Shown one piece after another: positions 2,656 to 29,259 of a DNA stretch of 29,262 nt (position 1 is the first letter of the stretch; the number at the start of each line of letters is the position of its first letter). The position numbers were made by a program, and so were the translations under genes. The notes under the pieces were generated by a model. It was not told where the DNA came from, did no database searches, and saw nothing but the letters and a program-made list of their open reading frames with translations. Source of the stretch: a virus; IMG/VR virus record IMGVR_UViG_3300009183_000275, positions 1-29,262 of that record; one strand, written 5' to 3'.

Positions 2656-2663
2656 TATTTATA
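2656..2663 (+). promoter_or_regulatory. Putative phage late promoter box TATTTATA before the collagen-like fibre cluster
   Basis: The exact TATTTATA lies in the 67-base gap between the second LamG gene and the first collagen-like fibre, 46 bases before the fibre ATG, in the context AGA-box. The same box recurs in other gaps before structural genes. The role is inferred from that recurrence. Confidence 0.5.
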
Positions 2664-2679
2664 CTAGATAAAGTCCACG

Positions 2680-2701
2680 CTTTGGGGACAGTGAACCAAA
2701 G
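2680..2701 (+). other. Leader hairpin upstream of first collagen-like fibre
   Basis: CTTTGG at 2680-2685 is exactly complementary to CCAAAG at 2696-2701, giving a 6-bp stem with a 10-base loop in the leader between the TATTTATA box and the ATG at 2710. No T-run follows, so it is not a terminator. It may affect mRNA stability or translation, or be chance. Confidence 0.3.
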
Positions 2702-2709
2702 AATTAAGT

Positions 2710-3900
2710 ATGGCAAATGAATTTATAGCTCGCAATGGTATTATATCTTTAAGTAATATCCAAATAACAGGTAGCCTGAATGTTACAGGTGGTATCACAG
2801 GTTCTATATCTGGAATGGCTACTACAGCCTCTTACATCAATCTCGCACAAACAGCTTCTTATAATTTACAAGCCATAAGCGCTTCTGTGGCAGTTACTGC
2901 TAGCGCGGCTAGAAACCCCGTATCACAAGGAATTACAGGTGTATTAGGTACTCAAGGTCCGGCTGGAAACGTTGGAACGCAAGGAGGTAACGGTATAGTA
3001 GGTATTCAAGGTACAGGCGGTCCAACAGGAACTACAGCTGCACAAGGTAGAACAGGTACTCAAGGTCCTACTGGTACAACCGTACAGGGTACACAAGGTG
3101 CTTCTAGTAGTAACGGTGATCAAGGCACTTTAGGTGCACAAGGTAGAGTAGGTACAACTGGTCCAACTGGCACAGTAGCAGGACCAACCGGCCCTTCAGG
3201 TCCTACAGGTAGAACAGGCGGATCCGGTCCAACCGGTCCAGTAGGTTCTACCGGTCCAACAGGTCCTCCTGGCCCGCCAGGTCCTCCCGGCCCAACTGGT
3301 TCACCTGGTCCAACAGGCGGACCCGGTCCAACCGGTCCAACCGGTCCTTACTCTACAGCAGCATCTGGCAATTCCGATTATGTTATGAAGTTTACTTCAA
3401 GTACAACAGCAGGTAATAGCTTAATGCAAGATAACGGATCTGCATGTATTGTGTCTAATTACATTTATATGTATGTACCTAGCGGTACTGCCGGTAGAGT
3501 AAATATCACTAAAGTAATTACTGGTAACCCTAGTGCAATAGCTTGTTATTCTAACGGTTCTTATTGTGGCGGTATGGATTACAGTGATAGTGCTACTCAA
3601 TTTCTATCTTCTTCAGATTATAGGTTAAAATACGATTTAAAAGATTTCAACGGTTTATCTTTACTTTCGAGAATTAAAGTATACAACTTTGCTTGGAAGC
3701 TAGACGATACAAGATCTTATGGTGTAGTAGCTCACGAATTACAGGAAATTTTGCCCGATGCAGTTATTGGGGAAAAAGACCGCATGGGATCAGACGGAAA
3801 TATGAAACCTCAAGGGGTTGATTATAGTAAAATAGTTCCTATATTAGTTAAAGCTACACAGGAATTACAGGAAATAGTTACACAGTTAAAAAATAAATAG
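2710..3900 (+). CDS. Collagen-like tail fibre with S74 chaperone domain, copy 1
   Basis: This 396-aa fibre has three parts. The N-terminal [13 protein letters not shown] block (residues 1-13) is almost shared with the next two genes and is followed by GS and TASY repeats; it probably docks to the tail. Residues about 77-213 are a Gly-X-Y collagen-like rod rich in GPTGP and GPPGPP, expected to form a triple helix. From about 222 comes a globular or trimerising part, then an S74 chaperone domain starting at S302-D303 with K307 (the Ser/Lys+5 self-cleavage dyad), [18 protein letters not shown], and a C-terminal helix. It is the first of three tandem paralogues and sits behind a putative late promoter. 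The likely role is host adhesion. Confidence 0.88.
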
Positions 3901-3931
3901 AAGTATTAGAATATGGCAAATGAATTTGTAG
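3894..3931 (+). repeat. 38-bp direct repeat at fibre gene junctions, copy 1
   Basis: Bases 3894-3931 equal 5135-5172 exactly. Each copy spans the stop of one fibre gene, the 12-base spacer and the first codons (MANEFV) of the next. Recombination between them would delete or duplicate a whole fibre gene. Confidence 0.85.
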
Positions 3932-5141
3932 CCCGTAATGGTATTATATCTCAAAACACCCTGCAAGTAACAGGGAGTATGAGTATAAGCAGCGGCGGTA
4001 TTACTGGATCTTTTTCAGGTACCGTAGCAACAGCATCTTATGCGGCTTTAGCTCAAACTGCTTCTTATGCTGCAAACGTACTAAGCGCTTCCTTTTCTAC
4101 TACAGCTGGTTATGCTCTAACTCCAACCGTACAAGGTACACAAGGTACACAAGGTATAGTAGGTGTATTAGGACCTCAAGGTGCCGTTGGTACACAAGGT
4201 GGACAAGGTACGACAGGTAACGTAGGTATTCAAGGCATAGGAGGTACACAAGGTACACAAGGTCCAATAGGAACACAAGGTATTCTTAGTCCTCCCGGTA
4301 CAATAGGTATAATAGGCCCTAAAGGTCCGCAAGGTACAGGACCCGGTTCACAAGGAGCTCAAGGCGGTACAGGCGGTACAGGTCCGCAAGGTGCTACAGG
4401 CTCTCCTGGAGGTCAAGGTACTACAGGTACAACTGGTCCTACCGGTAGAACAGGTCCTGCAAGCGCTGTAACAGGCAGTCCCGGTCCGACAGGCGGTGCT
4501 GGAGGTACAGGTCCACAAGGCGGTACAGGGCCAGCCGGCTCACCCGGTCCTCCAGGTGGTACAGGTCCGAACGGTTTGAGCGGTACCACAGGCTATATTG
4601 CTAAGTATACCTCATCTACTACTGCAGGCAGTGGATATGCATATGACGATGGATCTCAGGTATTGATTGGTAATACTTCAGCTAGTACTAGTGCAGGAAG
4701 TATTTGGATGTATAGACCAGGCGGTGCGGGTTATGGTAGAATAAATGTAATAAAAACATCACCAGGAGGTAATGACGCTGTAGCAAACTATTCTAATGGT
4801 AGTTATGTAGGAGGAATAGTATATGCTGATACTACTTGTAGCTTTCCAACATCTTCTGACTATAGATTAAAGTATGACTTAAGAGACTTTAACGGTACGA
4901 CTTTACTTTCAAGAATTAAAGTATATGACTTTGCTTGGAAAGTAGACGATACAAGGTCTTATGGAGTTATTGCTCATGAATTACAAGAAGTTCTTTCTGA
5001 TGCAGTTTTCGGAGAAAAAGATCGCATGGGATCAAATGGAGAAATTAAATACAAGGGGTGGATTATAGTAAAATAGTTCCTGTATTAGTCAAAACTATTC
5101 AAGAGTTGCAAGAAAGAGTTATACAGTTAAATAGTAAATAG
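3913..5141 (+). pseudogene. Collagen-like tail fibre with S74 domain, copy 2, frameshifted near its 3' end
   Basis: The open frame runs 3913-5076 (387 aa): MANEFVARNGIIS docking block, collagen-like rod (residues about 73-222), and an S74 domain with S315, D316 and K320. After [13 protein letters not shown] the frame turns into YKGWIIVK and stops. In the other frame, from about 5052, the sequence reads [14 protein letters not shown] and continues to a stop at 5139-5141, matching the [14 protein letters not shown] end of copy 1. One base appears to be missing around 5047-5052. As read, the protein loses the last roughly 30 residues of the chaperone domain, including its terminal helix, which would probably hurt trimer formation. 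It may be a real mutation in a redundant fibre gene or a sequence error. Confidence 0.8.
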
Positions 5142-5172
5142 AAGTATTAGAATATGGCAAATGAATTTGTAG
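5135..5172 (+). repeat. 38-bp direct repeat at fibre gene junctions, copy 2
   Basis: This is the second copy of the repeat at 3894-3931, 1241 bases downstream and spanning the junction between fibre copies 2 and 3. The first mismatch after the repeat is C at 3932 versus T at 5173. Confidence 0.85.
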
Positions 5173-6377
5173 TTCGTAATGGTATTATTTCACAGAATAA
5201 TATTCAAGTAACAGGTAGCTTGAATGCTACAGGTGGCATAACCGGATCTCTTTCTGGTACTGCTGCTTCTGCATCTTATGTAATTCTCTCTCAAACAGCT
5301 TCTTATGTTGTAAATTCAGTTAGTGCATCTTATTCGTTTACCGCTAGCTTTACCAATAATCCAAGTCTAACAGGTGCACAGGGTACACAAGGTATTCAAG
5401 GCGGTACAGGAGCACAAAGTGCACAAGGAGGAATAGGACCTCAAGGTACAGGCGGACCTCAAGGTACGCAAGGTACTACGGGTACAAACGGAAATGTAGG
5501 TATTCAGGGCGGACAAGGAGTTACAGGTACACAAGGTACCCAAGGTACACAAGGAGCACAAGGTTCGCAAGGAGCTCCAGGTAGTCAAGGTCCAGGTGGA
5601 ACAACAGGTACACAAGGCGGATCAGGTTCACCCGGCCCTCCCGGCCCTCCCGGAAGTCAAGGTACACTCGGTCCGCAAGGAGGTCAAGGACCAACCGGTT
5701 CTCCCGGAGGTCAAGGCCCAACAGGCGGTGGCGGTCCAACAGGACCTCCAGGCGGACCTGGTCCAACAGGTCCAACAGGCGGACCTGGTCCAACTGGTCC
5801 AAACAATTTAGCTGGTTCTACTAATTATATTGTTAGATTTACAGGGAATCTAGCTGGAACTACCGGTGTTACATACGACCAAGGAACTTTAATACTAGTA
5901 GGCGCTACTACTGCCAGTACTAGTGTTGCAACTGTATGGCTTTATAGAACCGCTAACGGATCTGGAAGATTTAATATTATTAAGACTGCTGGCGGATCTT
6001 ATGACTCTTTTGCAAACTACTACAACTCTACTTATGTAGGAGGAATAACTTACAGTGATAGTGCTACAGGTTTTGCAACATCTTCAGATTATAGGTTAAA
6101 GCACGATTTAAAGAATTTTAACGGTTTATCCTTACTTTCAAGAATAAAAGTGTACAACTTTGCTTGGAAATTAGACGATACAAGATCATATGGTGTTATT
6201 GCTCATGAATTAAAAGAAGTTCTTCCTGATGCAGTGAATGGCGAAAAAGATCAGTATTGTGAAGTCGATCCTACTAACATTAAACCACAAGCAGTTGATT
6301 ACAGTAAGATAATTCCTATATTAATACAATCCCTTCAAGAATTAGAAGAAGCGATTACAGAATTAGAAAGTAAATAA
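5154..6377 (+). CDS. Collagen-like tail fibre with S74 chaperone domain, copy 3
   Basis: This 407-aa protein has the same architecture as copies 1 and 2: MANEFVVRNGIIS docking block, TASY-type repeats, a collagen-like Gly-X-Y rod (residues about 74-217) with more GTQ and GGQ triplets than copy 1, a short head, and an S74 domain opening at S311-D312 with K316. The terminal portion is intact (QAVDYSKIIPILIQSLQELEEAI). Compared with copy 1 it carries a changed loop containing QYCEVDPTN. The three rods differ in length and triplet order while the ends are conserved, as expected for adhesins that diversify by unequal recombination. The three genes probably share the transcript that begins at the 2656 box. 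Confidence 0.88.
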   Translation: MANEFVVRNGIISQNNIQVTGSLNATGGITGSLSGTAASASYVILSQTASYVVNSVSASYSFTASFTNNPSLTGAQGTQGIQGGTGAQSAQGGIGPQGTGGPQGTQGTTGTNGNVGIQGGQGVTGTQGTQGTQGAQGSQGAPGSQGPGGTTGTQGGSGSPGPPGPPGSQGTLGPQGGQGPTGSPGGQGPTGGGGPTGPPGGPGPTGPTGGPGPTGPNNLAGSTNYIVRFTGNLAGTTGVTYDQGTLILVGATTASTSVATVWLYRTANGSGRFNIIKTAGGSYDSFANYYNSTYVGGITYSDSATGFATSSDYRLKHDLKNFNGLSLLSRIKVYNFAWKLDDTRSYGVIAHELKEVLPDAVNGEKDQYCEVDPTNIKPQAVDYSKIIPILIQSLQELEEAITELESK

Positions 6378-6379
6378 AG

Positions 6380-6410
6380 TTGCTTTTTAATTTAAAATAG
6401 CGTATATTAA
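6380..6410 (+). promoter_or_regulatory. Host-type promoter TTG-N20-TATATTAA before the radical SAM gene
   Basis: TTG at 6380-6382, 20 bases, then TATATTAA at 6403-6410. This has the spacing of the Bacteroidetes -33 TTG / -7 TAnnTTTG promoter, matching TAnnTT but not the last two bases. It directly follows the fibre cluster and lies 33 bases before the ATG at 6443. It is the weakest -7 box of the five seen here. Confidence 0.5.
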
Positions 6411-6442
6411 AGATCATACGTTTGTTATAAGAGATATAAATA

Positions 6443-8281
6443 ATGGTTATAAACTTAGTTAAAGATATACTACAGGAGGGTGGTTCAATTCACCCCTTAA
6501 TAATACCTCCAGATACTACCAACGGAACTGGGTTGATGAATCCATCTATTTTTGTACGTAATGGAAGATTGATTGTAAACCTACGTCACGTAAATTACAC
6601 TCTATATCACTGTGAAAACGGTCAATTATTTAATAACCGTTGGGGACCCTTAACATATTTAAATCCCGAAAACGACATTACTTTACGTACTGTTAATTAC
6701 TTTTGTAAATTAGATTCTAATTTTAACATAGGAGACTACTGTACCGTAGATACTACTCGTCTAGATGTTGAACCTATTTGGGAATTTGTTGGACTAGAAG
6801 ATGGAAGACTGGTAGAATGGGAAGGTTTATTGTATTTATGCGGTGTTAGAAGAGATACTACTACAAACGGACAAGGACGAATGGAATTGTCAGAGCTAAT
6901 AGTAAACAATGAAGCTGTAAAAGAGGTTGCGAGAAATAGAATAGAAGCTCCCAATGATCCAAGTTCTTATTGTGAAAAAAATTGGATGCCTGTTTTAGAT
7001 ATGCCCTTCCATTTTGTTAAATGGACTAATCCTACTGAATTAGTAAAAGTAGATTTAAAAACTAATACCTCTAAGACGGTTGTAACAAAAAGACAGGTAG
7101 GAGATCTCGGAAATTTAAGAGGAGGATCTCAAGTAATACCCTATAAAGGAAAAAGAATTTGTATTATTCACGTATGTCATTTTTGGTATACTACTTTAGA
7201 ACAAAAAAATGCTAAATACGATCATAGGTTTGTAGTTTGGGATAAAGATTGGAATATTGAATCTATCTCAGAACCTTTTAGCTTTATGGGAGGTGAGATT
7301 GAGTTTTGTACCGGTCTTGCTGAATACGAGGGTAATTTACTTATTACTTTTGGATTTCAAGATAATGCTGCCTACCTATTGAAAATGCCTACTAAGTTCT
7401 TTGATAACTTCGTAGAGTTTGTAGAAGAAGAAAAAGAGCATTGGAGATCAACTCCATATCCTACTTTAGAATTTACAACTTCTATACCGTCTAAGGGATG
7501 TGTAGTAGATTGTGCTTTCTGTCCTCAAAAAACCTTATTAAATGTCTATGACTCTACCAAGACGATGACATTAAAGAATTTTAAAAAGATAATTGATAAA
7601 TTACCCAAAGAAATTAGAATAACATTCTCAGGATTTACTGAACCTTGGTTAAATAAGCACTGTACGGATATGTTACTGTACGCCTATGAACAAGGGCATC
7701 CAGTATCTGCCTTTACAACAGGTGTTGGAATGACTATAGAAGATATAAAGCGTTTAAAAGACGTTAAATTCACTCAAGGACCTAATGGAGGATTTTGTTT
7801 GCACTTACCTGATCAAGAAAGAATAGCTAAGCACCCTATAACTCCTCGTTATATTGAAGTATTAAAGTACTTTAAAGAAGTACAAGATGAAATTAAAGGT
7901 TTTTACTTAATGTCTATGGGAGAGGTACATGAAGATGTTAAACATATCTTTCCAACAGCACATATACCGACCTTTTGGTCTCGAGCAGGTAACTTATTAG
8001 GTGAGGCAATCATTAAACCTGAATTACAAAAGTTTCAAGATAGGTTTAAGCATATGGATCATGGAGATCAAGAAATGACTTGTGGATGTATAGAAGACTT
8101 ATACCATAATGTAGTGTTACCAAATGGAGATGTATCCCTATGCTGCATGGATTATGGTTTAAAGCATATTATAGGTAATATCTACGATCAAGAATATAAT
8201 GATATAATTCCTAAACCTTTATCTTGCTTCAAACTTTGTCAGACTTGTGAAAATGGAGTAGACCCTAAAACTAAAGCGTAA
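6443..8281 (+). CDS. Beta-propeller / radical SAM / SPASM fusion protein
   Basis: This 612-aa two-part enzyme has an N-terminal region (about 1-330) resembling five-bladed propellers of the GH130/GH43 type: GLEDGRLVEWEGLLYLCGV (117-135), RGGSQVIPYKGKRICIIHVC (226-245), and FCTGLAEYEGNLLITFGFQ (288-306). The second part is a radical SAM domain with CVVDCAFC (C353, C357, C360), which ligates the 4Fe-4S cluster that cleaves S-adenosylmethionine, followed by FSGFTEP (395-401), the usual SAM-contact strand. Its C-terminus is SPASM-like: C547, C549, the pair C567-C568 after LPNGDVSL, a GNI motif, then C595, C599 and C602, enough for an auxiliary cluster. SPASM enzymes commonly modify peptides or sugars. 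The stop overlaps the next start by one base (TAATG), so the two are coupled. The substrate is unknown. Confidence 0.85.
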   Translation: MVINLVKDILQEGGSIHPLIIPPDTTNGTGLMNPSIFVRNGRLIVNLRHVNYTLYHCENGQLFNNRWGPLTYLNPENDITLRTVNYFCKLDSNFNIGDYCTVDTTRLDVEPIWEFVGLEDGRLVEWEGLLYLCGVRRDTTTNGQGRMELSELIVNNEAVKEVARNRIEAPNDPSSYCEKNWMPVLDMPFHFVKWTNPTELVKVDLKTNTSKTVVTKRQVGDLGNLRGGSQVIPYKGKRICIIHVCHFWYTTLEQKNAKYDHRFVVWDKDWNIESISEPFSFMGGEIEFCTGLAEYEGNLLITFGFQDNAAYLLKMPTKFFDNFVEFVEEEKEHWRSTPYPTLEFTTSIPSKGCVVDCAFCPQKTLLNVYDSTKTMTLKNFKKIIDKLPKEIRITFSGFTEPWLNKHCTDMLLYAYEQGHPVSAFTTGVGMTIEDIKRLKDVKFTQGPNGGFCLHLPDQERIAKHPITPRYIEVLKYFKEVQDEIKGFYLMSMGEVHEDVKHIFPTAHIPTFWSRAGNLLGEAIIKPELQKFQDRFKHMDHGDQEMTCGCIEDLYHNVVLPNGDVSLCCMDYGLKHIIGNIYDQEYNDIIPKPLSCFKLCQTCENGVDPKTKA

Positions 8282-9534: not shown

Positions 9535-9542
9535 TATTTATA
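9535..9542 (+). promoter_or_regulatory. Putative phage late promoter box TATTTATA before 9566
   Basis: The exact box lies in the 58-base gap after the methyltransferase, 23 bases before the ATG at 9566, with the same AGA prefix as at 2656. It likely starts the tail sheath/tube unit. Confidence 0.5.
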
Positions 9543-9791: not shown

Positions 9792-10043
9792 ATGAGCAAC
9801 AAGGTTACATTAACTCCAGAGGAATTAGTAAAATTCCAAGCAACTAGAAAAGAAGTCTACGAAATAGTAGGAATCTTAGGCGATTTAAATTACAGAAAAA
9901 CTCTTTTAGATCTTGAATTAGAGGGTTTAAAAGAACATATCAAGCAAGCTACCGTAGCAGAAAGAACCCTTTTAAAGGAGTTTGGTGAGAAGTACGGAGA
10001 TGGTTCTATTAACATAGAAACAGGCGAAATTACTACATTATAA
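9792..10043 (+). CDS. Small coiled-coil hypothetical protein
   Basis: This 83-aa protein is predicted mostly helical, with heptad-like leucines (about 8-65: LTPEELVKFQATRKEV through KQATVAERTLLKEF), ending in a short GDGSINIETGEITTL strand pair. There is no signal or membrane segment. It starts one base after the previous stop, and the sheath gene follows after a gap holding a variant late box. No family is recognised; it could be an assembly factor or a small virion subunit. Confidence 0.65.
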   Translation: MSNKVTLTPEELVKFQATRKEVYEIVGILGDLNYRKTLLDLELEGLKEHIKQATVAERTLLKEFGEKYGDGSINIETGEITTL

Positions 10044-10071
10044 TAATTTAGGTTTTGCCATCGTTACCAGC

Positions 10072-10079
10072 TATTTATT
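10072..10079 (+). promoter_or_regulatory. Putative late promoter box variant TATTTATT before sheath gene
   Basis: One mismatch from TATTTATA, in the 56-base gap before the sheath gene and 20 bases ahead of its ATG at 10100. A dedicated promoter for the abundant sheath protein would make sense. Confidence 0.4.
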
Positions 10080-10099
10080 ATCAGAAATAAACACATAAA

Positions 10100-12631: not shown

Positions 12632-12639
12632 TATTTATA
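12632..12639 (+). promoter_or_regulatory. Putative late promoter box TATTTATA before tail tube gene
   Basis: The exact box follows AAGA in the 33-base gap and lies 16 bases before the tube ATG at 12656. The short gap containing little else supports a functional role. Confidence 0.5.
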
Positions 12640-13520: not shown

Positions 13521-13528
13521 TATTTATC
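13521..13528 (+). promoter_or_regulatory. Putative late promoter box variant TATTTATC before chaperone gene
   Basis: One mismatch from TATTTATA, in the 47-base gap before the ATG at 13551 and 22 bases ahead of it. It would return late control to the tail genes after the independently promoted gene at 13246. Confidence 0.4.
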
Positions 13529-14612: not shown

Positions 14613-14620
14613 TATTTATA
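14613..14620 (+). promoter_or_regulatory. Putative late promoter box TATTTATA before tape measure gene
   Basis: The exact box ends 3 bases before the ATG at 14624 and 27 bases before the in-frame ATG at 14648. If transcription starts a few bases after the box, only 14648 has a leader like the other late genes. Confidence 0.5.
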
Positions 14621-14647
14621 TACATGAAGCTATTTAGTAAATTTTAT

Positions 14648-16834
14648 ATGGCAGATCCTCCAAATGGAGGCGGGTCCGGTCCTAGCGATAGAGATATTAG
14701 AAACGCTGAAGAGTTGAACAGACAATATTCTGAAATGCAAAGGACTCTCAGAGGCATAGGACCTGAGCTATTGAACGAGATTAATGAACAGATGGAGTTT
14801 CTAGATGAAACTGTTCAAGACATTGTAAAAAGTATCGGAAAAGATTTAAATAGAGAAATTCAAAGTAGTATTAGACTTACTAAAATACTATCAGATAGCG
14901 AAAAGGGAATAGGAAAGAGCCTAACTACTCAAGTAAAGGTACAGGAGCAAATTAAAGTGGTAGAAGAGAGGAGAAAGTCAATAATGAGTCTTATGGAAGA
15001 ATTAGTAGGCGAAAATATAGTAATGACAACAGCGATGGTAAGGCTACAAGAGAGTCTACTAGAAACATTAAATAACCAAGACGAAGCATTACAGAAGCAA
15101 TTAATTAAACTTACAAAATTTGAAAAGTTACTAGGAGGTATTGGCGGGGTATTAAAAGGTTTATCTAAAATCCCGATCGTAGGCCAGTTTATTAAAGCAG
15201 ATGAAGTACTTGCTAAAATGAAAAAAACCGCAGAAGAAGGCGGCAGTAAGATGAAAGTATTTTGGGAAGGTACAGATACTTTATTTAAAGGTATAGGGAT
15301 GAGCTTAATAGGTTTAATAGTACCTGCTTTAAAATTTGTAGTTGATGCAGTAATACAGTTTGATCAAAAAGCATTTGATATTGCTAAAAATTTAGGTACT
15401 TCTGCAGATGAAGGAGAGCGCTTACAGAAAAATTTCCAACAAATAGCTATTAATTCTGGTAATGCAGCGTTAATGAGTAAAGACGTAGCAAAAAGTTTTA
15501 CTGAGATTTCAAATACCCTAGGTTTTTTAGTTCCTTCATCTGGAGCATTTGCTGAATCTGCTGCACTTATACAAAAGAGACTTGGTGCATCGGCAGAAGA
15601 TATGGCCGTATTAGCTAGACAGTCTGCATTAAACGGACAAACCTTAGAACAAACTTATGCTACGTTAAGTGCTAGTAGGGTAATAGAAGGGGTAAGAAAT
15701 AAATTAGCTCTAACAAATAAACAAATATTAGACGGCATTGCTAAAACAAGTGCTGCTATTGTTATTAATTTTAAAGGCAGTACGGAAGCTCTTGCTAATG
15801 CAGTTATTAGAGCTGCTAAATTAGGTACTACATTAAATGATGTTAATAAACAAGCGGAGTCTTTAATAGATTTTGAATCAAGTATACAAAAAGAGTTTGA
15901 AGCACAAATTCTAACTGGTAGAGATATTAACTTAACAAAAGCTAGAGAACTTGCTTTATTGGGTGATACTCAAGGCTTGATGGAAGAATTAAATCGTCAA
16001 CAAGTCACTTACGATTCTTTTACTAAGCAGAATGTAATTCAAAGAAAAGCAGAAGCAGACGCAATAGGTCTAAGTGTTGAAGAGTTGTCAAAGAAGTTAC
16101 TTGCACAAAAACAAGCTAATGCCTTAGGTGCTGAAGAGGGACAATCTTTACAAGAAAGATATAACGATTTAATGAAAACTGCCGATGGACAGAAGCGAAT
16201 TAAAGAAGAGTTAACCGCACAAGAACAAGCTGACTTGAGAAGAGCTTCAATGCAAGACAGATTTCAAGCCGCTGTTGAGAAGTTGAAAGATACTTTAGGA
16301 AGTATGTTAGGAGGAGATGGACCTGTAGGTAAGATGGTTAATGCTTTTGCTTCTTTCGTAGGCGATACTAAGAAAATGACAGCTTTAGGAAACACTTTAA
16401 AGAGTATTTTTGAATCTATCAGTAAGACTATAGAGCGCTTCCCGCAGATTTTAAGTGCTTCAGTAAGTATAATGAAGGTACTAGTATCTCTATCTATAGC
16501 CAGAGCTGTAGCTAGTATAGTAGCTTCTTTAAGTACAGTTCCTATAGTAGGAGCAGCAGCAGGAGCATACGCAGGCTACAAAGCCTATAACTGGCTAGAT
16601 GGTTTAGCTAAAGGAATAGGAGGAGGAGCACCAGGTATAAGCATGCCAACTGAAAGCGGAATGACTCAACCTCCTACCGGCTATAACACGCAATCGCAAT
16701 CTGAAAATGAAGGAAAAAATAACACAAAAACACCGGTAGTAAATCTAAACGCAAATATACAAGTTGGAACAGAGGGATGGGGAAAACAAACTTTAATTGC
16801 TCTACAACAACATCACGGAACAACACTTAGATAA
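14648..16834 (+). CDS. Tail tape measure protein
   Basis: About 728 aa from the ATG at 14648 (MADPPNGGGSG); the frame is also open from ATG 14624, eight codons upstream, but that codon nearly abuts a putative promoter box. The protein is a long helical, coiled-coil-rich chain (about 20-160), with hydrophobic helices (around 215-240, and about 615-660 with SLSIARAVASIVASLSTVPI then a Gly/Ala-rich stretch), and the segment EAQILTGRDINLTKARELAL, which is common in myovirus tape measures. In this family the protein sets tail length inside the tube and may enter the cell. At about 1.5 angstrom per residue this fits a tail near 110 nm. It follows the chaperone gene, the usual order. Confidence 0.85.
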   Translation: MADPPNGGGSGPSDRDIRNAEELNRQYSEMQRTLRGIGPELLNEINEQMEFLDETVQDIVKSIGKDLNREIQSSIRLTKILSDSEKGIGKSLTTQVKVQEQIKVVEERRKSIMSLMEELVGENIVMTTAMVRLQESLLETLNNQDEALQKQLIKLTKFEKLLGGIGGVLKGLSKIPIVGQFIKADEVLAKMKKTAEEGGSKMKVFWEGTDTLFKGIGMSLIGLIVPALKFVVDAVIQFDQKAFDIAKNLGTSADEGERLQKNFQQIAINSGNAALMSKDVAKSFTEISNTLGFLVPSSGAFAESAALIQKRLGASAEDMAVLARQSALNGQTLEQTYATLSASRVIEGVRNKLALTNKQILDGIAKTSAAIVINFKGSTEALANAVIRAAKLGTTLNDVNKQAESLIDFESSIQKEFEAQILTGRDINLTKARELALLGDTQGLMEELNRQQVTYDSFTKQNVIQRKAEADAIGLSVEELSKKLLAQKQANALGAEEGQSLQERYNDLMKTADGQKRIKEELTAQEQADLRRASMQDRFQAAVEKLKDTLGSMLGGDGPVGKMVNAFASFVGDTKKMTALGNTLKSIFESISKTIERFPQILSASVSIMKVLVSLSIARAVASIVASLSTVPIVGAAAGAYAGYKAYNWLDGLAKGIGGGAPGISMPTESGMTQPPTGYNTQSQSENEGKNNTKTPVVNLNANIQVGTEGWGKQTLIALQQHHGTTLR

Positions 16835-17069: not shown

Positions 17070-18865
17070 ATGCCATTAATTAATTTCAAGACTAATTTTA
17101 CTAATTTAAGATTTGGCATGGATCAACCGGGAGGTGGAGATAGTGGTCAACCATTCATCCAATCCCCTATTGAGACTGCTAATACCCCTACGGAATTTAA
17201 AGATTTTTACAATCTTAATAGAACTAGCTTAGACTTTCCAATAAGAGGGGGAGCGATAAGCTCTCTAGTAGATGGAGGATATACAACACAAGCTGCTATT
17301 ATAGATTTAGAGCGTATTAAGAAGTTTTTTAAATCCGCACCACAAGGTGAGACTTTTATTAATAAGCAGAAAGGATTACAATTAACCAATCCGATAACAC
17401 AAGTTCCTAACTCGCTACAGTTTCTAGGGCTTTCTTTAGGTAATGCAGTTATACCTACAACACAGGTCTATAATCCAGCAAATACTTTAGCTCAAGTAGG
17501 AGTACAGGGAAATGGAACACATTTTAATAGACACGGAGTTAGTCCGAATGCATATGAGTCTGTTTATCAGACATATCAGTATATTCAGGCGCACCTCAAA
17601 ACAATACAGAAGTAACTAATAGATTATCTATCCTACGTGCTTTAAAATTAGTAGGAACTACAAACTTCCTTATAAATTCAGATTTAACTACCGGACTTAG
17701 TCTTGATCCATTACTTGTTGAGAGATTAGGTATTTCAACAATCCAAAATCAATTATTTAACTATCCAGGAGGTCCTGGTTCAAATTACGGTATTGGCTTT
17801 ACAAGAATCTTTAGAGCCACTGATACTAATATTACTAAGTTAAGTCAAACTAGACCTGATCCTCGCTTTACTGCTAATGGAAGTATAGCACAGCCTTATT
17901 CTGCTATTGCTTTTACCTATCAACAGCTAGCTCAACAAACAGGCTCTTATGCAGCAGGTAAAACACCTCTAACAACAAACATACAAGACTTTAGAAATCA
18001 ACTACCAGCCGGAGTATCTGGTACTGCTAGATCAGATTACTCTTTGTACAACATAGCTAATAAAAATAACAATTCCACTAAGAGAGGTTTAGGTATTGGT
18101 AACCCCGGCTCTCCTATTCAACAAAGTAACGTATTTAATGTTCGAAGAGTTACAGATATTGGTAGTGATTTAGTAAACTTAAATCCTTTCTTTTATTATA
18201 CACAAGACGGAGCAGGAGAGCAAACTCCATGGACAGCAGGAGGGCAAGATACCAAAGATATTATTAAGTTTGCTTTTGAATGTATAGATAATAATCAACC
18301 CTCACAAGCTATTGGACTTGTATTTAGAGCTTTCTTTGATGGTCAAATTAGTGATTCAAATACAGCAGAATATAATACATTTAAATACCTAGGAAGAGGT
18401 GAAACTTTTAGAACTTATCAAGGATTTGATAGAACAATTGGATTTACATTTAAGGTATTTTGTCAAAGTAGACAAGAGATGCAACCTCTATACACTAAAT
18501 TAAATAACTTAGTATCCCAAGTATACCCAGACTATTCTCCTACCTCTAATTTAATGAGAGGAAATGTTGTTAAATTGACAATTGGCGATTATATTTATAG
18601 AATGCCAGGATTTTTAGAGAATGTAAATATAACTATTGATAATAGTAATACCCCTTGGGAAATTCAATTAAAAGGAGCATTAGAAACAGACGTAGCAGAA
18701 TTACCTCATATGGTTACTGTTGCATGTACATTTAAACCAATTATGGATATTTTACCGAGAAAAGCTACATTCGGTGATCTAAATGTACCTCTTATTGCAA
18801 ACGGAGGCTTAATGTCTCAAGGAGCATTAACTCAAGTTCCAACAGTTCAAAATAATCCTGTTTAA
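17070..18865 (+). pseudogene. Baseplate protein (tube-initiator-like), one gene split by a frameshift
   Basis: Two open frames make one gene. Frame A runs 17070-17615 (MPLINFKTNF, then INKQKGLQLTNPITQVPNSL). Frame B is open 17558-18865 and carries NRLSILRALKLVGTTNFLIN, later the LGRGETFRTYQGFDRTIGFT block, and GDYIYRMPGFLENVNITID near the end. Frame B has no ATG near its start, only a TTG at 18044 well inside conserved-looking sequence, so bases 17616-18043 are coding and not a gap. The switch lies between 17558 and 17613 and equals one missing base (or a -1 shift). The full product would be about 598 aa. The C-terminal part looks like tail tube-fold baseplate proteins such as gp48/gp54, but this is tentative. 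Confidence 0.75.
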
Positions 18866-24084: not shown

Positions 24085-24087
24085 GAG

Positions 24088-24118: not shown

Positions 24119-24132
24119 TGTAAATAAATGTT

Positions 24133-25428
24133 ATGTATTTCATCGTCGAGACCGAAGAGCAATTAGCACAGCTCTCTAGACCGGAAAAATGTTTTATAGA
24201 GCTAATGTCTCTTTCTGAGCATACTCACCCCTCTCTAACTACACCGTGCGTATTATATTATAACGATTTCCAGAAAGGTTATATAATTCCAATCAATCAT
24301 TCAGAAGGTTTTTCTTTTTCTATTGAAAAGATTCAGACTTTTCTTCAAGAAATCCCTAAAGTCTACTTGTTAGATCACAAGTGGCATTCTTATTACTTAG
24401 ATCTACCTAATGCAATCGATTTATACTTTACTGCTTTAGATGTAGACGGTAAGGTTGAAGATTTTCAATGCTATACACCAGTACACCTAGACTTCTACGA
24501 AAAGTTTAAATACTCACCAACAGTAAACACTTACATTCCAATCTCAAAGCATTATGAAAGGTGTGAATGTATGTTTGAAATAGTTAAAAAGTACATTGGA
24601 CTGGAGTTAAATACAGAATGGCAGGGTATATACACAGAAGTATATAAATGGGTAGAAGAGCAGGGAATCTTGGTGGATGAAAAGCTCTTTGATAAGTACT
24701 TTGAGACTCCTTGGAAGGGGAGATCTATGAGGGATAGTAGGGTTTATTCAAGTTATAACCTATATAACATTACCTCACGTCCTACTAATGCATTTAATAG
24801 TATAAACTTCCTGGCTTTTAATAAAGATAACCATTCTAGAACGGCTTTTATACCGCAAAACGATGCTTTTGTAGAGTTTGACTTTGATGGATATCATATA
24901 AGATTAATTGCTGATGCAATGCATAGTGATATTCCACAAGATCAATCAATTCACGAGTATTTAGGTAAGCAGTACTTTAATAAAAAAGAATTAACACCAG
25001 AAGAATACCAGGAAGCTAAGAAAATTACCTTTAGGCAGATGTATAACGGAGTAGAGGAGGAGTATATGCACATTGAATTCTTTTTAGACGTATATCATAC
25101 TGTAAGAGCTATGTGGACTACCTATACAAATAATGGTTTTTTAGAGTTACCAAACGGTAGAAAACTTACCCAAGAAAATACGAATCCTCAAAAACTATTC
25201 AACTACTATATCCAGTGCTTAGAAACAGTGAATAACGTGAAAAAACTAAGCAAACTAAAGGAATACCTTCAAAATAAGCAAAGTAAGGTGCTTTTAGTAG
25301 TATACGATTCAATACTAATTGATTATTCAGTAGAGGACGGAAAAGGAACATTAACAGACATTAAAAACATATTAGAAGAGGGTGGATATAGAGTAAAAGC
25401 CAAGAAAGGGCATAACTATAACTTTTAG
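24133..25428 (+). CDS. Divergent family A (Pol I-like) DNA polymerase with degenerate exonuclease domain
   Basis: This 431-aa protein is short for Pol I-like enzymes. The whole polymerase part can be laid on E. coli Pol I: TSRPTN (214-219) on TGRLSS; motif A DFDGYHIR (250-257) on DYSQIELR; IH at 273-274 on DIH; motif B AKKITFRQMYNG (295-306) on AKAINFGLIYG; FLELPNGRKL on YVETLDGRRL; and motif C YDS (391-393) on HDE. Both metal-binding Asp (D250, D392), the motif B Lys (K296) and Tyr (Y304) are kept. The steric-gate Glu is His255, the Arg four before K296 is Tyr292, and the Glu of HDE is Ser393. The N-terminal about 110 residues look like a 3'-5' exonuclease fold (PINHSEGF, LLDHKWHSYY, AIDLYF) without its acidic residues. 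T4 itself uses a family B polymerase. Confidence 0.82.
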   Translation: MYFIVETEEQLAQLSRPEKCFIELMSLSEHTHPSLTTPCVLYYNDFQKGYIIPINHSEGFSFSIEKIQTFLQEIPKVYLLDHKWHSYYLDLPNAIDLYFTALDVDGKVEDFQCYTPVHLDFYEKFKYSPTVNTYIPISKHYERCECMFEIVKKYIGLELNTEWQGIYTEVYKWVEEQGILVDEKLFDKYFETPWKGRSMRDSRVYSSYNLYNITSRPTNAFNSINFLAFNKDNHSRTAFIPQNDAFVEFDFDGYHIRLIADAMHSDIPQDQSIHEYLGKQYFNKKELTPEEYQEAKKITFRQMYNGVEEEYMHIEFFLDVYHTVRAMWTTYTNNGFLELPNGRKLTQENTNPQKLFNYYIQCLETVNNVKKLSKLKEYLQNKQSKVLLVVYDSILIDYSVEDGKGTLTDIKNILEEGGYRVKAKKGHNYNF

Positions 25429-25442
25429 AACAAATTAACAAC

Positions 25443-25450
25443 TATTTATA
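25443..25450 (+). promoter_or_regulatory. TATTTATA box abutting the ATG at 25451
   Basis: The exact box ends directly at the ATG. As a promoter it would leave no leader for this gene, so it may be a chance A/T-rich leader or serve downstream genes. Weaker case than the other boxes. Confidence 0.25.
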
Positions 25451-25870
25451 ATGGAATTTATTAAGTTAACGCAAGAACAATTGAAGAATAAGTTATTTTG
25501 TACATTTTCCCCTAAAGATAAGCTGGAAGATACTTTAGACACCATTAAAGGGGAGTATACTATTATGTATAGTAAAATTTTCGTATTAGAGTCGGAAGAT
25601 TCTGACGAGTATTTATGTACCTATAACATCGAAGTACAGAGCGATAATACAAGAGTACTTCCAAATACTATTTTATTACATAGAAAGAAGGAAACCAACA
25701 CGTTATACACTATTAACAGTTTGAACCTTCTTATTAAGTCCCTAAACGAGGGCATTTTAGATACATCTTTTAGAATTGAGTGGCAAAATTACAGAAACAC
25801 TGTCCTTTTGACTCAAGGTGATGATTTAAGAAAACTTTCTACAAAAATTCACAAAATAGTCAACCTATAA
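25451..25870 (+). CDS. Hypothetical protein in replication cluster
   Basis: This 139-aa protein has mixed alpha/beta character: an N-terminal helix (KLTQEQLKNKLF), a central beta region (YLCTYNIEVQSDNTRVLP), then a helix with NSLNLLIKSLNEGILDTSF, and an end DDLRKLSTKIHKIVNL. There is no membrane segment, zinc motif or recognisable catalytic pattern. It lies between the polymerase and gp32 genes, where T4 keeps gp33 (late co-activator) and gp59 (helicase loader), but I see no sequence likeness to either. Likely transcribed with the polymerase from the 24088 promoter. Function unknown. Confidence 0.65.
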   Translation: MEFIKLTQEQLKNKLFCTFSPKDKLEDTLDTIKGEYTIMYSKIFVLESEDSDEYLCTYNIEVQSDNTRVLPNTILLHRKKETNTLYTINSLNLLIKSLNEGILDTSFRIEWQNYRNTVLLTQGDDLRKLSTKIHKIVNL

Positions 25871-25871
25871 G

Positions 25872-25902
25872 TTGGTATTTCGAATTATTCTACTTACATT
25901 TC
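25872..25902 (+). promoter_or_regulatory. Host-type promoter TTG-N20-TACATTTC before gp32 gene
   Basis: TTG at 25872-25874, 20 bases, then TACATTTC at 25895-25902, one mismatch from TAnnTTTG. It lies 36 bases before the gp32 ATG at 25939, with leader AATAAGTTATG. Confidence 0.65.
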
Positions 25903-25938
25903 CGTATAAGTAAATTTTTTAAACTAAAACAATAAGTT

Positions 25939-26748
25939 ATGGCAATGGACCTATCTGCGATTAAGTCGAAACTTAGTTCGCTACAAACCCAAAAATCAGG
26001 CGGTCAGAAAAGAGACATGTCTTTGATTTTATGGAAGCCTACACCAGGCAAACACTTCGTTCGTATCGTTCCAGCTACATGGGACAGATCAAATCCTTTT
26101 AAAGAGGTATTAGTACATTACGGTATTGGTAACCGTACAATGATTTCATTAGTTAACTTCGGTGAAAAAGATCCGATTGTTGAATTTGCTAAGCAATTAG
26201 CTACAGCAGGGGATAAAGAAAACTGGGTTATGTCTAAGAAGTTAGAACCTAAGATGCGTGTATTCGTTCCTGTCATTGTTAGAGGCGAAGAAGAGAAGGG
26301 TGTACGTTTATGGGAATTCGGTAAGCAAGTTTATGCTGAGTTATTATCATTAGCTGATGATCCTGATGTAGGTGATTACACAGATGTAATTGATGGTCGT
26401 GATATTACGATTGAAACTACAGATGCAGCAACTAACGGTACTGGTTATAATCAATCTAAAGTACGTGTTCGTACTAAAACTACTCCTTTATCAGAAGATG
26501 CTAAAGAAGTTGAGAAGTGGTTAAATACTCAACCAGAAGCATTTACTATCTTTAAGAAATATTCTTATGATGAGATGAAAGAGTCTTTATTAAGTTGGTT
26601 ACACCCTGAAGCGGCTACCGACGAACCAGTAGCACCAGCTACTCCTACAGTAGAAGCACCAGCTTCTGCTAATAAACCAGCATCATTTGCTTTAAATACA
26701 AAACCTAAAGCAAGTATTGACGACGAGTTCGACGAATTATTTAAATAA
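25939..26748 (+). CDS. gp32: Single-stranded DNA-binding protein (gp32 family)
   Basis: This 269-aa protein follows the T4 gp32 plan: N-terminal basic segment for cooperative self-interaction (SAIKSKLSSLQTQKSGGQKR), the core starting LILWKPTPGKHFVRIVP, FKEVLVHYGIGNRTMI, PKMRVFVPVIVR, RLWEFGKQVYAELL, and GRDITIE, and an acidic C-terminal tail ending DDEFDELFK after a Pro/Ala-rich linker, which recruits partner replication proteins. It coats unwound DNA for replication, recombination and repair. It contains no cysteine at all, so the zinc ribbon of T4 gp32 is absent. It has its own host-type promoter and is followed after 8 bases by uvsX. Most arginines use CGT, unlike the AGA-rich neighbours, suggesting high expression. 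Confidence 0.93.
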   Translation: MAMDLSAIKSKLSSLQTQKSGGQKRDMSLILWKPTPGKHFVRIVPATWDRSNPFKEVLVHYGIGNRTMISLVNFGEKDPIVEFAKQLATAGDKENWVMSKKLEPKMRVFVPVIVRGEEEKGVRLWEFGKQVYAELLSLADDPDVGDYTDVIDGRDITIETTDAATNGTGYNQSKVRVRTKTTPLSEDAKEVEKWLNTQPEAFTIFKKYSYDEMKESLLSWLHPEAATDEPVAPATPTVEAPASANKPASFALNTKPKASIDDEFDELFK

Positions 26749-26756
26749 ACAATTAC

Positions 26757-27833
26757 ATGGTAAAAGGAACTAAAGCTTCTCTTAATGAGAGTATAGCGGG
26801 TGCCCTAAAGGGTACCTTTAATCTAGATAGCTTCAAAGAAGCAAAGAACTTATCTAGTACATCGATTAAGATGAAAGAACAAAAATGGATACCTTTATCA
26901 AAAGCCTTTCAAGATTGTCTTTCTATTCCTGGTATACCACAAGGACATATTACCCTTTTAAGAGGTCACTCTGACACCGGTAAAACAACAGCTCTTCTAG
27001 AAGCAGCAGTAAGCGCCCAGAAAATGGGCGTCTTACCTGTTTTTATTGTTACTGAGATGAAGTGGAATTGGGAACATGCCAGGCTAATGGGATTACAGTA
27101 TGACGAAGTAGCTGACGAAAATGGAGTAGTTAAAGACTATAAAGGATTTTTCTTGTATATTGATAGAGAGAGATTAAATAGTATCGAAGACGTAGGTGCA
27201 TTTATTGCAGACTTATTAGACGAACAAAAAAACGGTAAATTACCTTACGACTTATTATTTTTATGGGATTCAGTAGGTAGCATACCTTGTGAAATGTCTA
27301 TAACATCTAATAAGAATAATAACGAGTGGAATGCAGGAGCTATGTCTAAGACATTTGGTAACTTTATTAACCAGAAGATCGTATTATCACGTAAAGAAAG
27401 TCAACCCTATACCAACTCAATGCTAGCAGTTAATAAAATCTGGGTAGCTAAAGCAGAAAACATTATGGCACAGCCTAAGATGAAGAATAAAGGGGGAGAT
27501 ACGATGTATTTTGATTCTTCGTTAATTGTTACTTTCGGTAATGTTACTAGCTCAGGTACAAATAAGATCAAAGCCACTAAAAACGGTAAGGATGTAGAGT
27601 TTGCAAAGAGAACTAAAGTTAGTTGTGATAAGAATCACGTTAACGACGTAACATCTGCAGGTAGAGTTATTATGACTGCACATGGTTTTATTGATGATAC
27701 TAAACAAGCTATTGACGCTTATAAGAAACAGTATTCAAAAGGCTGGTTAAAGACTTTAGGTACTACTGATTTTGATGTAATAATAGAAACTGACGACGAT
27801 AGTAAAGATATTTTTGACGCTTCAGAGGAATAG
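26757..27833 (+). CDS. uvsX: UvsX RecA-like recombinase
   Basis: This 358-aa protein carries the RecA-fold ATPase core: Walker A GHSDTGKTT (residues 70-78), catalytic Glu in VTEMKWNWEHA (E100), Walker B DLLFLWDS (D171), and the downstream polymerisation/DNA-binding region with NKIWVAKAENIM and GGDTMYFDSSL. It ends with an acidic tail. In T4, UvsX forms filaments on ssDNA coated by gp32 and drives strand exchange for recombination-dependent replication. The gene follows gp32 directly, and the promoter of denV lies across its last codons. Length is close to T4 UvsX (391 aa). Confidence 0.93.
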   Translation: MVKGTKASLNESIAGALKGTFNLDSFKEAKNLSSTSIKMKEQKWIPLSKAFQDCLSIPGIPQGHITLLRGHSDTGKTTALLEAAVSAQKMGVLPVFIVTEMKWNWEHARLMGLQYDEVADENGVVKDYKGFFLYIDRERLNSIEDVGAFIADLLDEQKNGKLPYDLLFLWDSVGSIPCEMSITSNKNNNEWNAGAMSKTFGNFINQKIVLSRKESQPYTNSMLAVNKIWVAKAENIMAQPKMKNKGGDTMYFDSSLIVTFGNVTSSGTNKIKATKNGKDVEFAKRTKVSCDKNHVNDVTSAGRVIMTAHGFIDDTKQAIDAYKKQYSKGWLKTLGTTDFDVIIETDDDSKDIFDASEE

Positions 27834-27844
27834 TCGTATCTTTG
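27813..27844 (+). promoter_or_regulatory. Host-type promoter TTTG-N20-TATCTTTG before denV
   Basis: TTTG at 27813-27816, 20 bases, then TATCTTTG at 27837-27844, a full match to both Bacteroidetes promoter elements. It overlaps the end of uvsX and lies 14 bases before the denV ATG at 27859, with leader TAAATAAATGTTATG. The strongest promoter by sequence in the window. Confidence 0.82.
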
Positions 27845-27858
27845 TATAAATAAATGTT

Positions 27859-28248
27859 ATGACAAGGATTAATATCGGAGTACCTCCGCGTGAATTAACT
27901 AACAAGCATTTAATTGCTGAACATAGAGAGATAAAACGTATTCCAAACGTTGTATCAAAAGGTAAATACAACCTTAAGGGTGTTCCACCCCAATTTACTT
28001 TAGGTAAAGGACACGTATCGTTTTTTTATGACAAGCTAGGCTATCTAAAAGAACGGTACGTGAGTCTTTACAATGAGTGTATCATTCGAGGCTTTAATGT
28101 ACAGAACTATGAAGCTTCTTGGGACGGTGTTCCACGGGAGTTAATGAACAGTTATGTACCTACAGAGAGGGATATAGAAATAGTAACAGAAAGGATAGTA
28201 GATAGATTAGCTAATCCAATCGCAAAACAAAAAAAGAATGGATTATAA
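27859..28248 (+). CDS. denV: DenV-type pyrimidine dimer glycosylase/AP lyase (endonuclease V)
   Basis: This 129-aa protein matches T4 endonuclease V (138 aa) along its length: MTRIN start, with Thr2 becoming the N-terminal catalytic amine after Met removal and Arg3 beside it; HLIAEHREIKRIP with E24 at the place of the catalytic Glu; and FTLGKGHVSFFYDKLGYLKE, then ECIIRGFN. T4 DenV flips out and excises UV-induced cyclobutane pyrimidine dimers and nicks the site. It starts behind a full-match host-type promoter and overlaps the RNase H start by 11 bases, so the two repair/replication genes are coupled. The C-terminal Trp/Tyr-Lys-rich end of T4 DenV, important for dimer binding, is replaced by a basic KQKKNGL end. 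Confidence 0.95.
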   Translation: MTRINIGVPPRELTNKHLIAEHREIKRIPNVVSKGKYNLKGVPPQFTLGKGHVSFFYDKLGYLKERYVSLYNECIIRGFNVQNYEASWDGVPRELMNSYVPTERDIEIVTERIVDRLANPIAKQKKNGL

Positions 28249-29251
28249 AAAAATGTTCGCAGAAATGGAGAGTCAAGCTCCTGAAGACTTACATAAAAAC
28301 AGCAAAGTCTTAATTGTAGACTCATTAAATACTTTCTTACGTAGCTTTGTAGCCATTCACCACATTAATCCAGCAGGTAACCACGTAGGTGGCTTAGGAG
28401 GCTTTTTAAAATCGGTAGGTGCTGTTATAAAGCAAATACAACCCACGAGGGTTGTTTTAGTTTTTGACGGTGTTGGCGGTTCTACTAATAAAAGGTACCT
28501 ATATCCTGAATATAAAGCCAACAGACACATTACTAAAATATCAAACTGGGATGCTTTTGATAATCAAGAAGAAGAATCGGAGTCTATTACTAATCAAATT
28601 TTACGTTTAGTTTCTTACTTAAAGTGTTTACCTGTTGATTTAATTGCAATAGATAAAATTGAAGCAGATGACGTAATTGGATACCTTGCAACTAGGTTTC
28701 CCGAAAAAGTAACTATACTATCTACTGATCAAGACTACTTACAGCTTGTATCAGATAAAGTAACTGTCTATTCACCAGTCAAGAAGATAATTTACGACCC
28801 AGCTAGAGTAATAAAAGAGTACGGAATTACACCTCAAAACTTTTTAGTGAGTAAAGTTATACTAGGCGATAAAGGAGACAATGTACCGGGTGTAAAAGGT
28901 ATTGGAGCAAAGACATTATTAAAGCTTTTTCCTCAATTAAAAGAAGAAGAGAAATTTAGGCTGTTAGTTTTACTAGAACATGCAAAGCAAAATATTGCAA
29001 AAAGTAAACATTATGGTGATATACTTAATTTTTCTTATCAATTAGATATAAACCGTAAGTTAATGGACTTAACTAACCCGAATATACCTCAAGAAGATAA
29101 AGTTGTAATAGATAATTTATTACATAATCCAAATAATGAGTACGACCCTACTAAATTTGTAAAATTATACAACGAAGACTTATTAGGTAAGACCTTACTT
29201 AGCCCTCAAATATGGTTAGGTGAAACTTTTGCAAAATTACCTGCCTATTGA
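28238..29251 (+). CDS. rnh: T4 RNase H-type 5'-3' exonuclease (FEN family)
   Basis: This 337-aa protein (T4 RNase H is 305 aa) has the PIN/FEN nuclease plan: VDSLNTFLR (D28), VLVFDG (D77), YPEYKANR, IEADDVIG (E142, D144, D145), STDQDYLQL (D164, D166), GDKGDNVPGV (D211, D214), and a helix-3turn-helix VKGIGAKTLLK for DNA backbone contact. These are the acidic residues that bind two metals. The enzyme removes RNA primers and short adjacent DNA from lagging-strand fragments. The start lies inside denV with an 11-base overlap. The stop is 11 bases from the window end, and a TATTTATT box (29252-29259) follows. Confidence 0.92.
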   Translation: MDYKKMFAEMESQAPEDLHKNSKVLIVDSLNTFLRSFVAIHHINPAGNHVGGLGGFLKSVGAVIKQIQPTRVVLVFDGVGGSTNKRYLYPEYKANRHITKISNWDAFDNQEEESESITNQILRLVSYLKCLPVDLIAIDKIEADDVIGYLATRFPEKVTILSTDQDYLQLVSDKVTVYSPVKKIIYDPARVIKEYGITPQNFLVSKVILGDKGDNVPGVKGIGAKTLLKLFPQLKEEEKFRLLVLLEHAKQNIAKSKHYGDILNFSYQLDINRKLMDLTNPNIPQEDKVVIDNLLHNPNNEYDPTKFVKLYNEDLLGKTLLSPQIWLGETFAKLPAY

Positions 29252-29259
29252 TATTTATT
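29252..29259 (+). promoter_or_regulatory. Possible late box variant TATTTATT at window end
   Basis: It immediately follows the rnh stop, one mismatch from TATTTATA. The downstream gene lies outside the window, so the role cannot be judged. Confidence 0.3.

What the first reader, a model, noticed from the sequence alone, without database searches (positions are those of the whole stretch)
2656..29259. Recurrent TATTTATA box in gaps before virion genes: candidate late promoter, inverted relative to T4
Exact copies at 2656, 9535, 12632, 14613 and 25443, and one-mismatch copies at 10072, 13521 and 29252, lie in intergenic gaps that together make up little over 1 kb. By rough base-composition reckoning, well under one exact copy would be expected there. 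Most precede structural transcription units by 16-46 bases. The box is the exact reverse complement of the T4 late box TATAAATA. Either this lineage has a late sigma (gp55-like) with a changed specificity, or the boxes fire on the other strand.
Basis: partly seen in the sequence, partly recalled or inferred. Interest (0 to 1): 0.72.

Follow-up and report, generated by a model that had tools for sequence, protein, structure and literature searches.

The report
Phage late-gene promoter box, conserved
The recurring TATTTAT box is very probably the switch that turns on virion genes late in infection in a large group of aquatic phages related to T4, and their genomes carry a previously unlabelled distant cousin of T4's late-gene activator that probably reads it.

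Summary
All eight listed copies are present. TATTTATA occurs 5 times in 928 bp of gaps against 0.3-0.8 expected, and 4 times in the remaining 28 kb (+ strand). The core is TATTTAT. In uncultivated relatives it is retained before sheath (65 of 66 distinct upstream regions), tube (58/63) and hub (40/43), and is nearly absent before most genes that lack it in the window (7 of 373; 34 of 438 counting all rows). It is enriched in gaps genome-wide and on the genes' strand in the complete relative Flavobacterium phage immuto (38 of 64 copies in 5% of the genome; reverse complement 13 of 42), in an 80-kb contig of the window's lineage (27 versus 1) and in Microcystis phage Mel-JY01. The boxes therefore read forward; the 'other strand' option is not supported. 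Replication genes carry host-type TTG/TAnnTTT promoters instead. Immuto gp118, annotated hypothetical, is a distant gp55 homologue (profile E 2.7e-8; sigma-region-2 fold in the model); homologues exist in two large contigs of sheath relatives. No gp45 clamp or gp33 was detected. Best reading: a late promoter with changed specificity, read by a gp55-type sigma. That the sigma reads this box is inferred. No transcript ends were available.

The parts
2656..2663 (+). exact TATTTATA box, 46 nt before tail-fibre-like gene 2710
   Evidence: the single ortholog found also has a box (1 of 1)
9535..9542 (+). exact box before small gene 9566
   Evidence: 5 of 5 orthologs have TATTTAT
10072..10079 (+). 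TATTTATT box 20 nt before the tail sheath gene (10100)
   Evidence: 75 of 76 orthologs, 65 of 66 distinct upstream regions; sheath by PHROG 23
12632..12639 (+). exact box 16 nt before the tail tube gene (12656)
   Evidence: 58 of 63 distinct ortholog upstream regions; tube by PHROG
13521..13528 (+). TATTTATC box 22 nt before the baseplate hub gene (13551)
   Evidence: 40 of 43 distinct ortholog upstream regions; hub by PHROG
14613..14620 (+). exact box 27 nt before the likely true start (14648) of gene 14624-16834, whose position matches the tape-measure gene
   Evidence: 4 of 4 distinct ortholog upstream regions; the second ATG matches the start of the more distant orthologs
25443..25450 (+). 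exact box abutting the ATG of gene 25451
   Evidence: 38 of 48 distinct ortholog upstream regions; several distant orthologs have it about 20-30 nt before the ATG
29252..29259 (+). TATTTATT box at the contig end; in relatives the same sequence precedes a gene that looks like an HNH homing endonuclease, inserted before the helicase gene
   Evidence: L225, L229, L235, L237
25872..25902 (+). host-type promoter candidate TTG-N20-TACATTTC before the ssDNA-binding protein gene (contrast class)
   Evidence: read; TTG-N17-21-TAnnTTT in 31 of 53 distinct ortholog upstream regions, box in 1 of 53
27837..27844 (+). host-type -7 box TATCTTTG before gene 27859 (contrast class)
   Evidence: read; 16 of 24 orthologs host-like, 0 of 24 with box

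Best explanation
TATTTAT(A/T) is the -10-type element of the late promoters of a group of T4-related, mostly Bacteroidota-infecting phages. Host RNA polymerase carrying a phage gp55-type sigma factor (the immuto gp118 family) reads it on the coding strand and starts transcription a few bases downstream, giving a short leader before the first ATG of virion transcription units. Early and replication genes use host-sigma promoters (TTG...TAnnTTT). Shown: conservation, strand, position, gene class, existence of a distant gp55 homologue with a sigma-region-2 fold. Inferred: that the box is a promoter, that this sigma reads it, and when it acts.
For: Orthologous upstream regions keep the box at window-box genes in 210 of 229 distinct sequences and at 12 no-box genes in 7 of 373 (dropped rows in the full report). 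Immuto: 38 of 64 + copies in gaps, reverse complement 13 of 42; 10 of 14 annotated structural or lysis genes with a gap of 20 bp or more have it, against 4 of 16 annotated metabolic, replication or other non-structural genes (P 0.026). Contig G002 of the window's lineage: 27 box versus 1 reverse in gaps, before portal, prohead region, PhoH, sheath, tube, hub and tape measure. Mel-JY01 has the box about 34 nt before the ATG, with a separate GGAG-type ribosome site between, so the box is not a ribosome site. T4 late region as mirror control: TATAAATA within 60 nt upstream of 12 of 49 genes and TATTTATA of 5; immuto 6 and 24 of 233. Sigma: gp118 N-domain versus gp55 profile prob 95.2, E 2.7e-8, score 53.6 against a maximum of 20.4 in 40 shuffles; the AF2 model (pLDDT 78.6) gives 50 of 50 listed PDB chains that are sigma factors as I read their titles, T4 gp55 third (7d7c_F, Z 9.7, 125 aligned, rmsd 6.9). 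Sigma homologues in G002 and G001.
Against: No transcript data. The window lacks the sigma gene (29-kb fragment), 12 or more of the environmental sheath-relative contigs show none, and neither do the 10 contigs, all fragments. LR756508 has a gp118 homologue (40%) but no TATTTAT upstream of 22 ORFs in 27 kb. Some non-virion genes carry the box (GroES, PduO, NrdF, PhoH in immuto). Pfam Sigma70_r2 and PHROG 234 matches to single members are all weak or below threshold. Boxes do not follow T-runs more than other gap positions (9 of 38 against 16%). In the hub set 10 of 43 upstream regions also fit the host pattern.
Confidence: 0.75

Rival explanations
1. The box is a variant -7 element of the host housekeeping sigma (TAnnTTTG) or of a host alternative sigma; no phage sigma is involved.
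For: TATATTTAT, common at the hub gene, also fits TAnnTTT; 10 of 43 hub upstream regions fit TTG-N17-21-TAnnTTT. Flavobacteria use TAnnTTTG (PMC9723704, passages read).
Against: The two bases before TATTTAT vary (GA, GC, AA, AC, CA, TA) where the host box needs TA; host-like pattern 0 of 66 at sheath and 0 of 48 at gene 25451; the two classes separate by gene. The same box occurs in Mel-JY01, recorded from a cyanobacterium.
Confidence: 0.15
2. The box is a translation or mRNA-stability signal in the leader, not a promoter.
For: Bacteroidota mRNAs lack Shine-Dalgarno sites (abstract of PMC6847099 in the listing) and AT-rich leaders may matter; the box lies about 20 nt before the ATG.
Against: Only 34 of 233 immuto genes have it within 60 nt, mostly at gaps and not inside gene runs; Mel-JY01 has the box plus its own GGAG site further downstream; at gene 25451 it abuts the ATG.
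Confidence: 0.06
3. The boxes are T4-type TATAAATA promoters firing on the opposite strand.
For: Exact reverse complement of the T4 late box.
Against: Genes lie almost all on the box's own strand; in G001, with 16 ORFs on one strand and 70 on the other, own-strand TATTTAT versus opposite is 3 v 0 and 17 v 7. T4-orientation copies at 6435 and 27845 are not conserved as far as tested (27859: 0 of 24 TATAAATA; 6443 had no orthologs).
Confidence: 0.02
4. Chance in AT-rich gaps.
For: Some 8-mer reaches 5 copies in 5-20% of random gap sets.
Against: Conservation and strand asymmetry in many relatives.
Confidence: 0.01

Closest known systems
T4 late promoters with gp55 / gp33 / gp45
   Same: Single short AT-rich -10-type box before virion genes, no shared -35; gp55-family sigma-2 protein encoded by relatives
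   Different: Box is TATTTAT(A/T) not TATAAATA; the sigma has an extra C-terminal domain of about 90 residues and no visible clamp motif; gp45 (PF02916) and gp33 (phrog_254) not detected in six relatives
T4-like cyanophage, KVP40 and Aeh1 late promoters
   Same: In silico late boxes of T4 relatives (PMC2988020 section 9, read)
   Different: Reported as highly similar to T4's, or changed only at -13/-12 (Aeh1)
Bacteroidota housekeeping promoter (-33 TTG, -7 TAnnTTTG)
   Same: TTT core, AT-rich
   Different: Different conserved positions and different gene class in these phages
Flavobacterium phage vB_FspM_immuto (Immutovirus)
   Same: Nearest named relative (sheath 54%); same box, same gene order around sheath
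   Different: Box often followed by AATAAA-like rather than the A(C/G)TAGA-like sequence seen at many sheath boxes of uncultivated relatives

Membership tests
T4 late promoter | TATAAATA at -13 to -6 | tested here: not met
   The box is its reverse complement; TATAAATA in gaps not conserved
T4 late promoter | no conserved -35 element | tested here: met
   Box-aligned consensus per gene shows no element shared across all genes; sheath sites share TTT about 16-18 nt before the box
T4 late promoter | lies before virion/late transcription units | tested here: met
T4 late promoter | late RNA 5' ends about 6 nt downstream of the box | not testable with these tools
   no RNA data
gp55 late sigma (immuto gp118 family) | sigma-region-2 homology to gp55 | tested here: met
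   hhalign E 2.7e-8, 0 of 40 shuffles; fold match to 7d7c_F; single-sequence HMM scores weak
gp55 late sigma (immuto gp118 family) | C-terminal hydrophobic sliding-clamp-binding motif | tested here: not met
   none seen in the alignments, by eye
T4 late transcription system | gp45 sliding clamp | tested here: inconclusive
   PF02916: 0 of 6 relatives, T4 found; divergent or fragmentary genomes not excluded
T4 late transcription system | gp33 co-activator | tested here: inconclusive
   phrog_254: 0 of 6 relatives, T4 found
Bacteroidota sigma-A promoter | TAnnTTTG with TTG about 19-21 nt upstream | tested here: not met
   0 of 66 sheath, 1 of 63 tube, 0 of 48 gene 25451; 10 of 43 hub by overlap
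sigma-4 or gp33 identity of the gp118 C-domain | sequence similarity | tested here: not met
   no better than shuffles

The most novel reading that the evidence does not exclude
These phages use a one-piece late sigma: a gp55-type sigma-2 domain fused to a C-terminal domain that replaces gp33, working without a T4-type sliding clamp and reading a box that is the reverse complement of T4's. This would be the natural fused late sigma that a 2010 review said had not been found (PMC2988020 section 9). Sequence tests did not show the C-domain to be sigma-4 or gp33.
Probability: 0.25. Interest if true: 0.82.

Novelty: new variant of a known kind. Interest (0 to 1): 0.62.

Why it matters
It gives a usable late-promoter signature for a widespread, mostly uncultivated group of aquatic phages, labels an unannotated sigma family found in hundreds of contig stretches, and makes testable how a gp55-type sigma changed its box and whether late transcription can do without the gp45 clamp.

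Tried and rejected
Chance, ribosome site, opposite-strand promoter and host sigma box were each tested (see rivals). Adjacency to terminators looked striking by eye in immuto but is not significant. A strict Bacteroidota pattern (TTG-N18-23-TAnnTTTG) found no promoters in gaps on the coding strand of immuto (0 of 4), so the host-type class rests on the window's lineage only. The idea that the gp118 C-domain is sigma-4 or gp33 failed by sequence. Foldseek against the PDB gave no match at E 0.001 or below; only the VIA second look did. A profile search of PDB sequences found nothing. The single-sequence structure model was poor (pLDDT 49.7) and was not used. RM378 and the jumbo phage LR756508 show no box upstream of ORFs in the parts read. 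Literature: TATTTATA with promoter and phage gave 3 papers, none about such a promoter as listed; Flavobacterium/phage/late promoter/sigma factor gave 0; searches gave no prior description in their listings; PMC4360716 and PMC9723584 hold none of the words promoter or sigma. The library is open-access only.

Full report
WHAT THE WINDOW IS. A 29,262-base uncultivated virus record, 35.7% GC, genes on the + strand as I annotated them: tail-fibre-like genes, sheath, tube, hub, a gp53-like wedge, gp32-like SSB, UvsX-like recombinase, an endonuclease V-type repair enzyme and an exonuclease. The nearest named phage is Flavobacterium phage immuto (sheath 54% identical).

THE BOX IS REAL. Coordinates are confirmed and counts exceed composition models. 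The window alone is not decisive: after allowing for choice of 8-mer, 5-20% of random gap sets have an equally frequent 8-mer, and one-mismatch copies are not strand-specific.

CONSERVATION. I took 80 sheath-selected and 80 SSB-selected loci, located orthologs of each window gene by tblastn (alignment starting within the first 15 residues) and asked whether TATTTAT lies in the 60 nt upstream (distinct upstream sequences). Window-box genes: sheath 65/66, tube 58/63, hub 40/43, 14624 4/4, 9566 5/5, 25451 38/48: 210 of 229. Genes without a box in the window: 11894 0/22, 14389 1/15, 16797 0/8, 17070 0/25, 18876 1/22, 19174 0/21, 23446 3/44, 24133 0/47, SSB 1/53, 26757 1/48, 27859 0/24, 28238 0/44: 7 of 373. 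Rows left out of these sums: 2710 1/1 (box gene), and 900 3/6, 3913 1/1, 5154 1/2, 9792 22/56 (no-box genes). With them the totals are 211 of 230 and 34 of 438; gene 9792 shows that the box is gained or lost in front of some genes. The other window genes had no ortholog by this rule. These counts are of related sequences, not independent events.

GENOME-WIDE. Immuto, all 160 kb: 38 of 64 TATTTAT in 8,488 gap bp (4.48 against 0.17 per kb coding); reverse complement 13 of 42. Boxes stand before terminase, portal, sheath, tube, hub, tape measure, a tail spike and a virion structural gene, but also before GroES, PduO, NrdF and PhoH. Structural or lysis genes 10 of 14, annotated metabolic, replication or other non-structural genes 4 of 16 (P 0.026), hypothetical 18 of 66, counting gaps of 20 bp or more. 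The 118-160 kb virion region has 15 of 25 such gaps with a box, the 60-78 kb block of small genes 2 of 32 (P 1.6e-5; regions chosen after seeing the data). G002, an 80-kb contig whose sheath is 78% identical to the window's: 27 box versus 1 reverse in gaps; G001 24 versus 5; Mel-JY01 (45 kb) 9 versus 2; sigma-selected loci 220 versus 118; sheath-selected 391 versus 58; SSB-selected 123 versus 15 (tests, Mel-JY01 not significant at P 0.065). T4's late region gives the mirror image, TATAAATA over TATTTATA.

DIRECTION. Median distance from box to ATG is 20 nt in sheath loci. In G001, which has ORFs on both strands, the box is on the gene's own strand in both sets (3 v 0 of 16; 17 v 7 of 70).

NOT A RIBOSOME SITE. 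In Mel-JY01 the box lies about 34 nt before the ATG with a separate GGAG-like site between.

SECOND PROMOTER CLASS. SSB (31/53), 24133 (17/47) and 27859 (16/24) orthologs carry TTG-N17-21-TAnnTTT, the flavobacterial housekeeping type (PMC9723704, passages read), and lack the box; sheath 0/66. The window's own SSB gap shows it (25872-25902). Immuto did not show the strict form of this pattern.

A SIGMA FOR IT. PHROG 234 (T4 gp55) touched immuto gp118 (78174-78872, 'hypothetical') at E 0.008. Eighty relatives were fetched. Profile comparisons: E 6.1e-6, 1.2e-6 with divergent members, and for the N-domain alone 2.7e-8, score 53.6 against at most 20.4 for 40 column-shuffled profiles; against E. 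coli sigma-2 domains only 16.0 (shuffles up to 14.3), so the tie is to gp55 more than to sigma factors in general. The alignment-based model (pLDDT 78.6) was compared by VIA with 589 Foldseek-ranked chains: all 50 rows listed are sigma factors by their titles (three 'RPS' and one 'SIGA' cross-linking models counted from recall of the B. subtilis names), and T4 gp55 (7d7c_F) is third, Z 9.7 over 125 residues, rmsd 6.9. Foldseek itself was not significant, and Z of this size can occur for helical proteins by chance, but a list made only of sigma factors is hard to get that way. Homologues lie in G002 (contig positions 74130-74813), G001 and Mel-JY01; that search also rang in G016 and G017, which had been brought in by the sigma itself. 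The other environmental sheath-relative contigs of that search and the 10 contigs showed none; all are fragments. LR756508 has a 40% homologue without the box, so box and sigma are not strictly linked.

HOW IT PROBABLY WORKS. By analogy with T4, the sigma-2-like domain would load on host core polymerase and read a -10-like box with no -35. T4's gp45 and gp33 families were not detected in six relatives while T4 itself scored, and the family lacks a visible gp55 clamp tail. It has instead a C-domain of about 90 residues of unknown identity: tests against sigma-4 and gp33 failed. PMC2988020 (section 9 read) states that a natural fused late sigma had not been found; this family is a candidate, not a demonstration.

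ODD SITES. The 14613 box is 27 nt before the likely start 14648. The 25443 box abuts a conserved ATG in near kin but sits about 20-30 nt upstream in several distant kin, so start or transcript form there is unresolved. The 29252 box matches relatives in which it precedes a gene that looks by eye like an HNH homing endonuclease, inserted after the first codons of the helicase gene.

VERDICT. A conserved late-promoter element of changed specificity with a probable cognate gp55-type sigma: a new variant of the T4 late system, unproven at the RNA level.

Noticed in passing
17070-18865: One gene is split by a frameshift near 17600; both halves are in the same frame in 27 of 29 relatives that have both, so a local sequencing error or mutation. 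The first-pass gap 17616-18043 is really coding.
   Followed up: yes
29240-29262; L225, L229, L235, L237: In these relatives a gene that looks by eye like an HNH homing endonuclease with its own TATTTATTATA box sits between the exonuclease and the helicase, at codon 5 of a duplicated helicase start.
   Followed up: partly
   Followed up: yes
L187 7184-7411 (Mel-JY01): Mel-JY01 encodes ribosomal protein bS21 and has GGAG-type ribosome sites, while the window's gaps and most immuto gaps seen lack them; its sheath and sigma resemble Bacteroidota phages although its recorded host is a cyanobacterium.
   Followed up: no
2710-6377: Three tandem paralogous tail-fibre-like genes with near-identical starts (MANEF.(A/V)RNGIIS) and collagen-like repeats.
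   Followed up: no
sheath upstream regions, window 10040-10099: Beyond the box, sheath promoters share TTT about 16-18 nt upstream and, in many relatives, TA(C/G)TAGA(T)AAA downstream, mostly not seen at the other boxes.
   Followed up: partly
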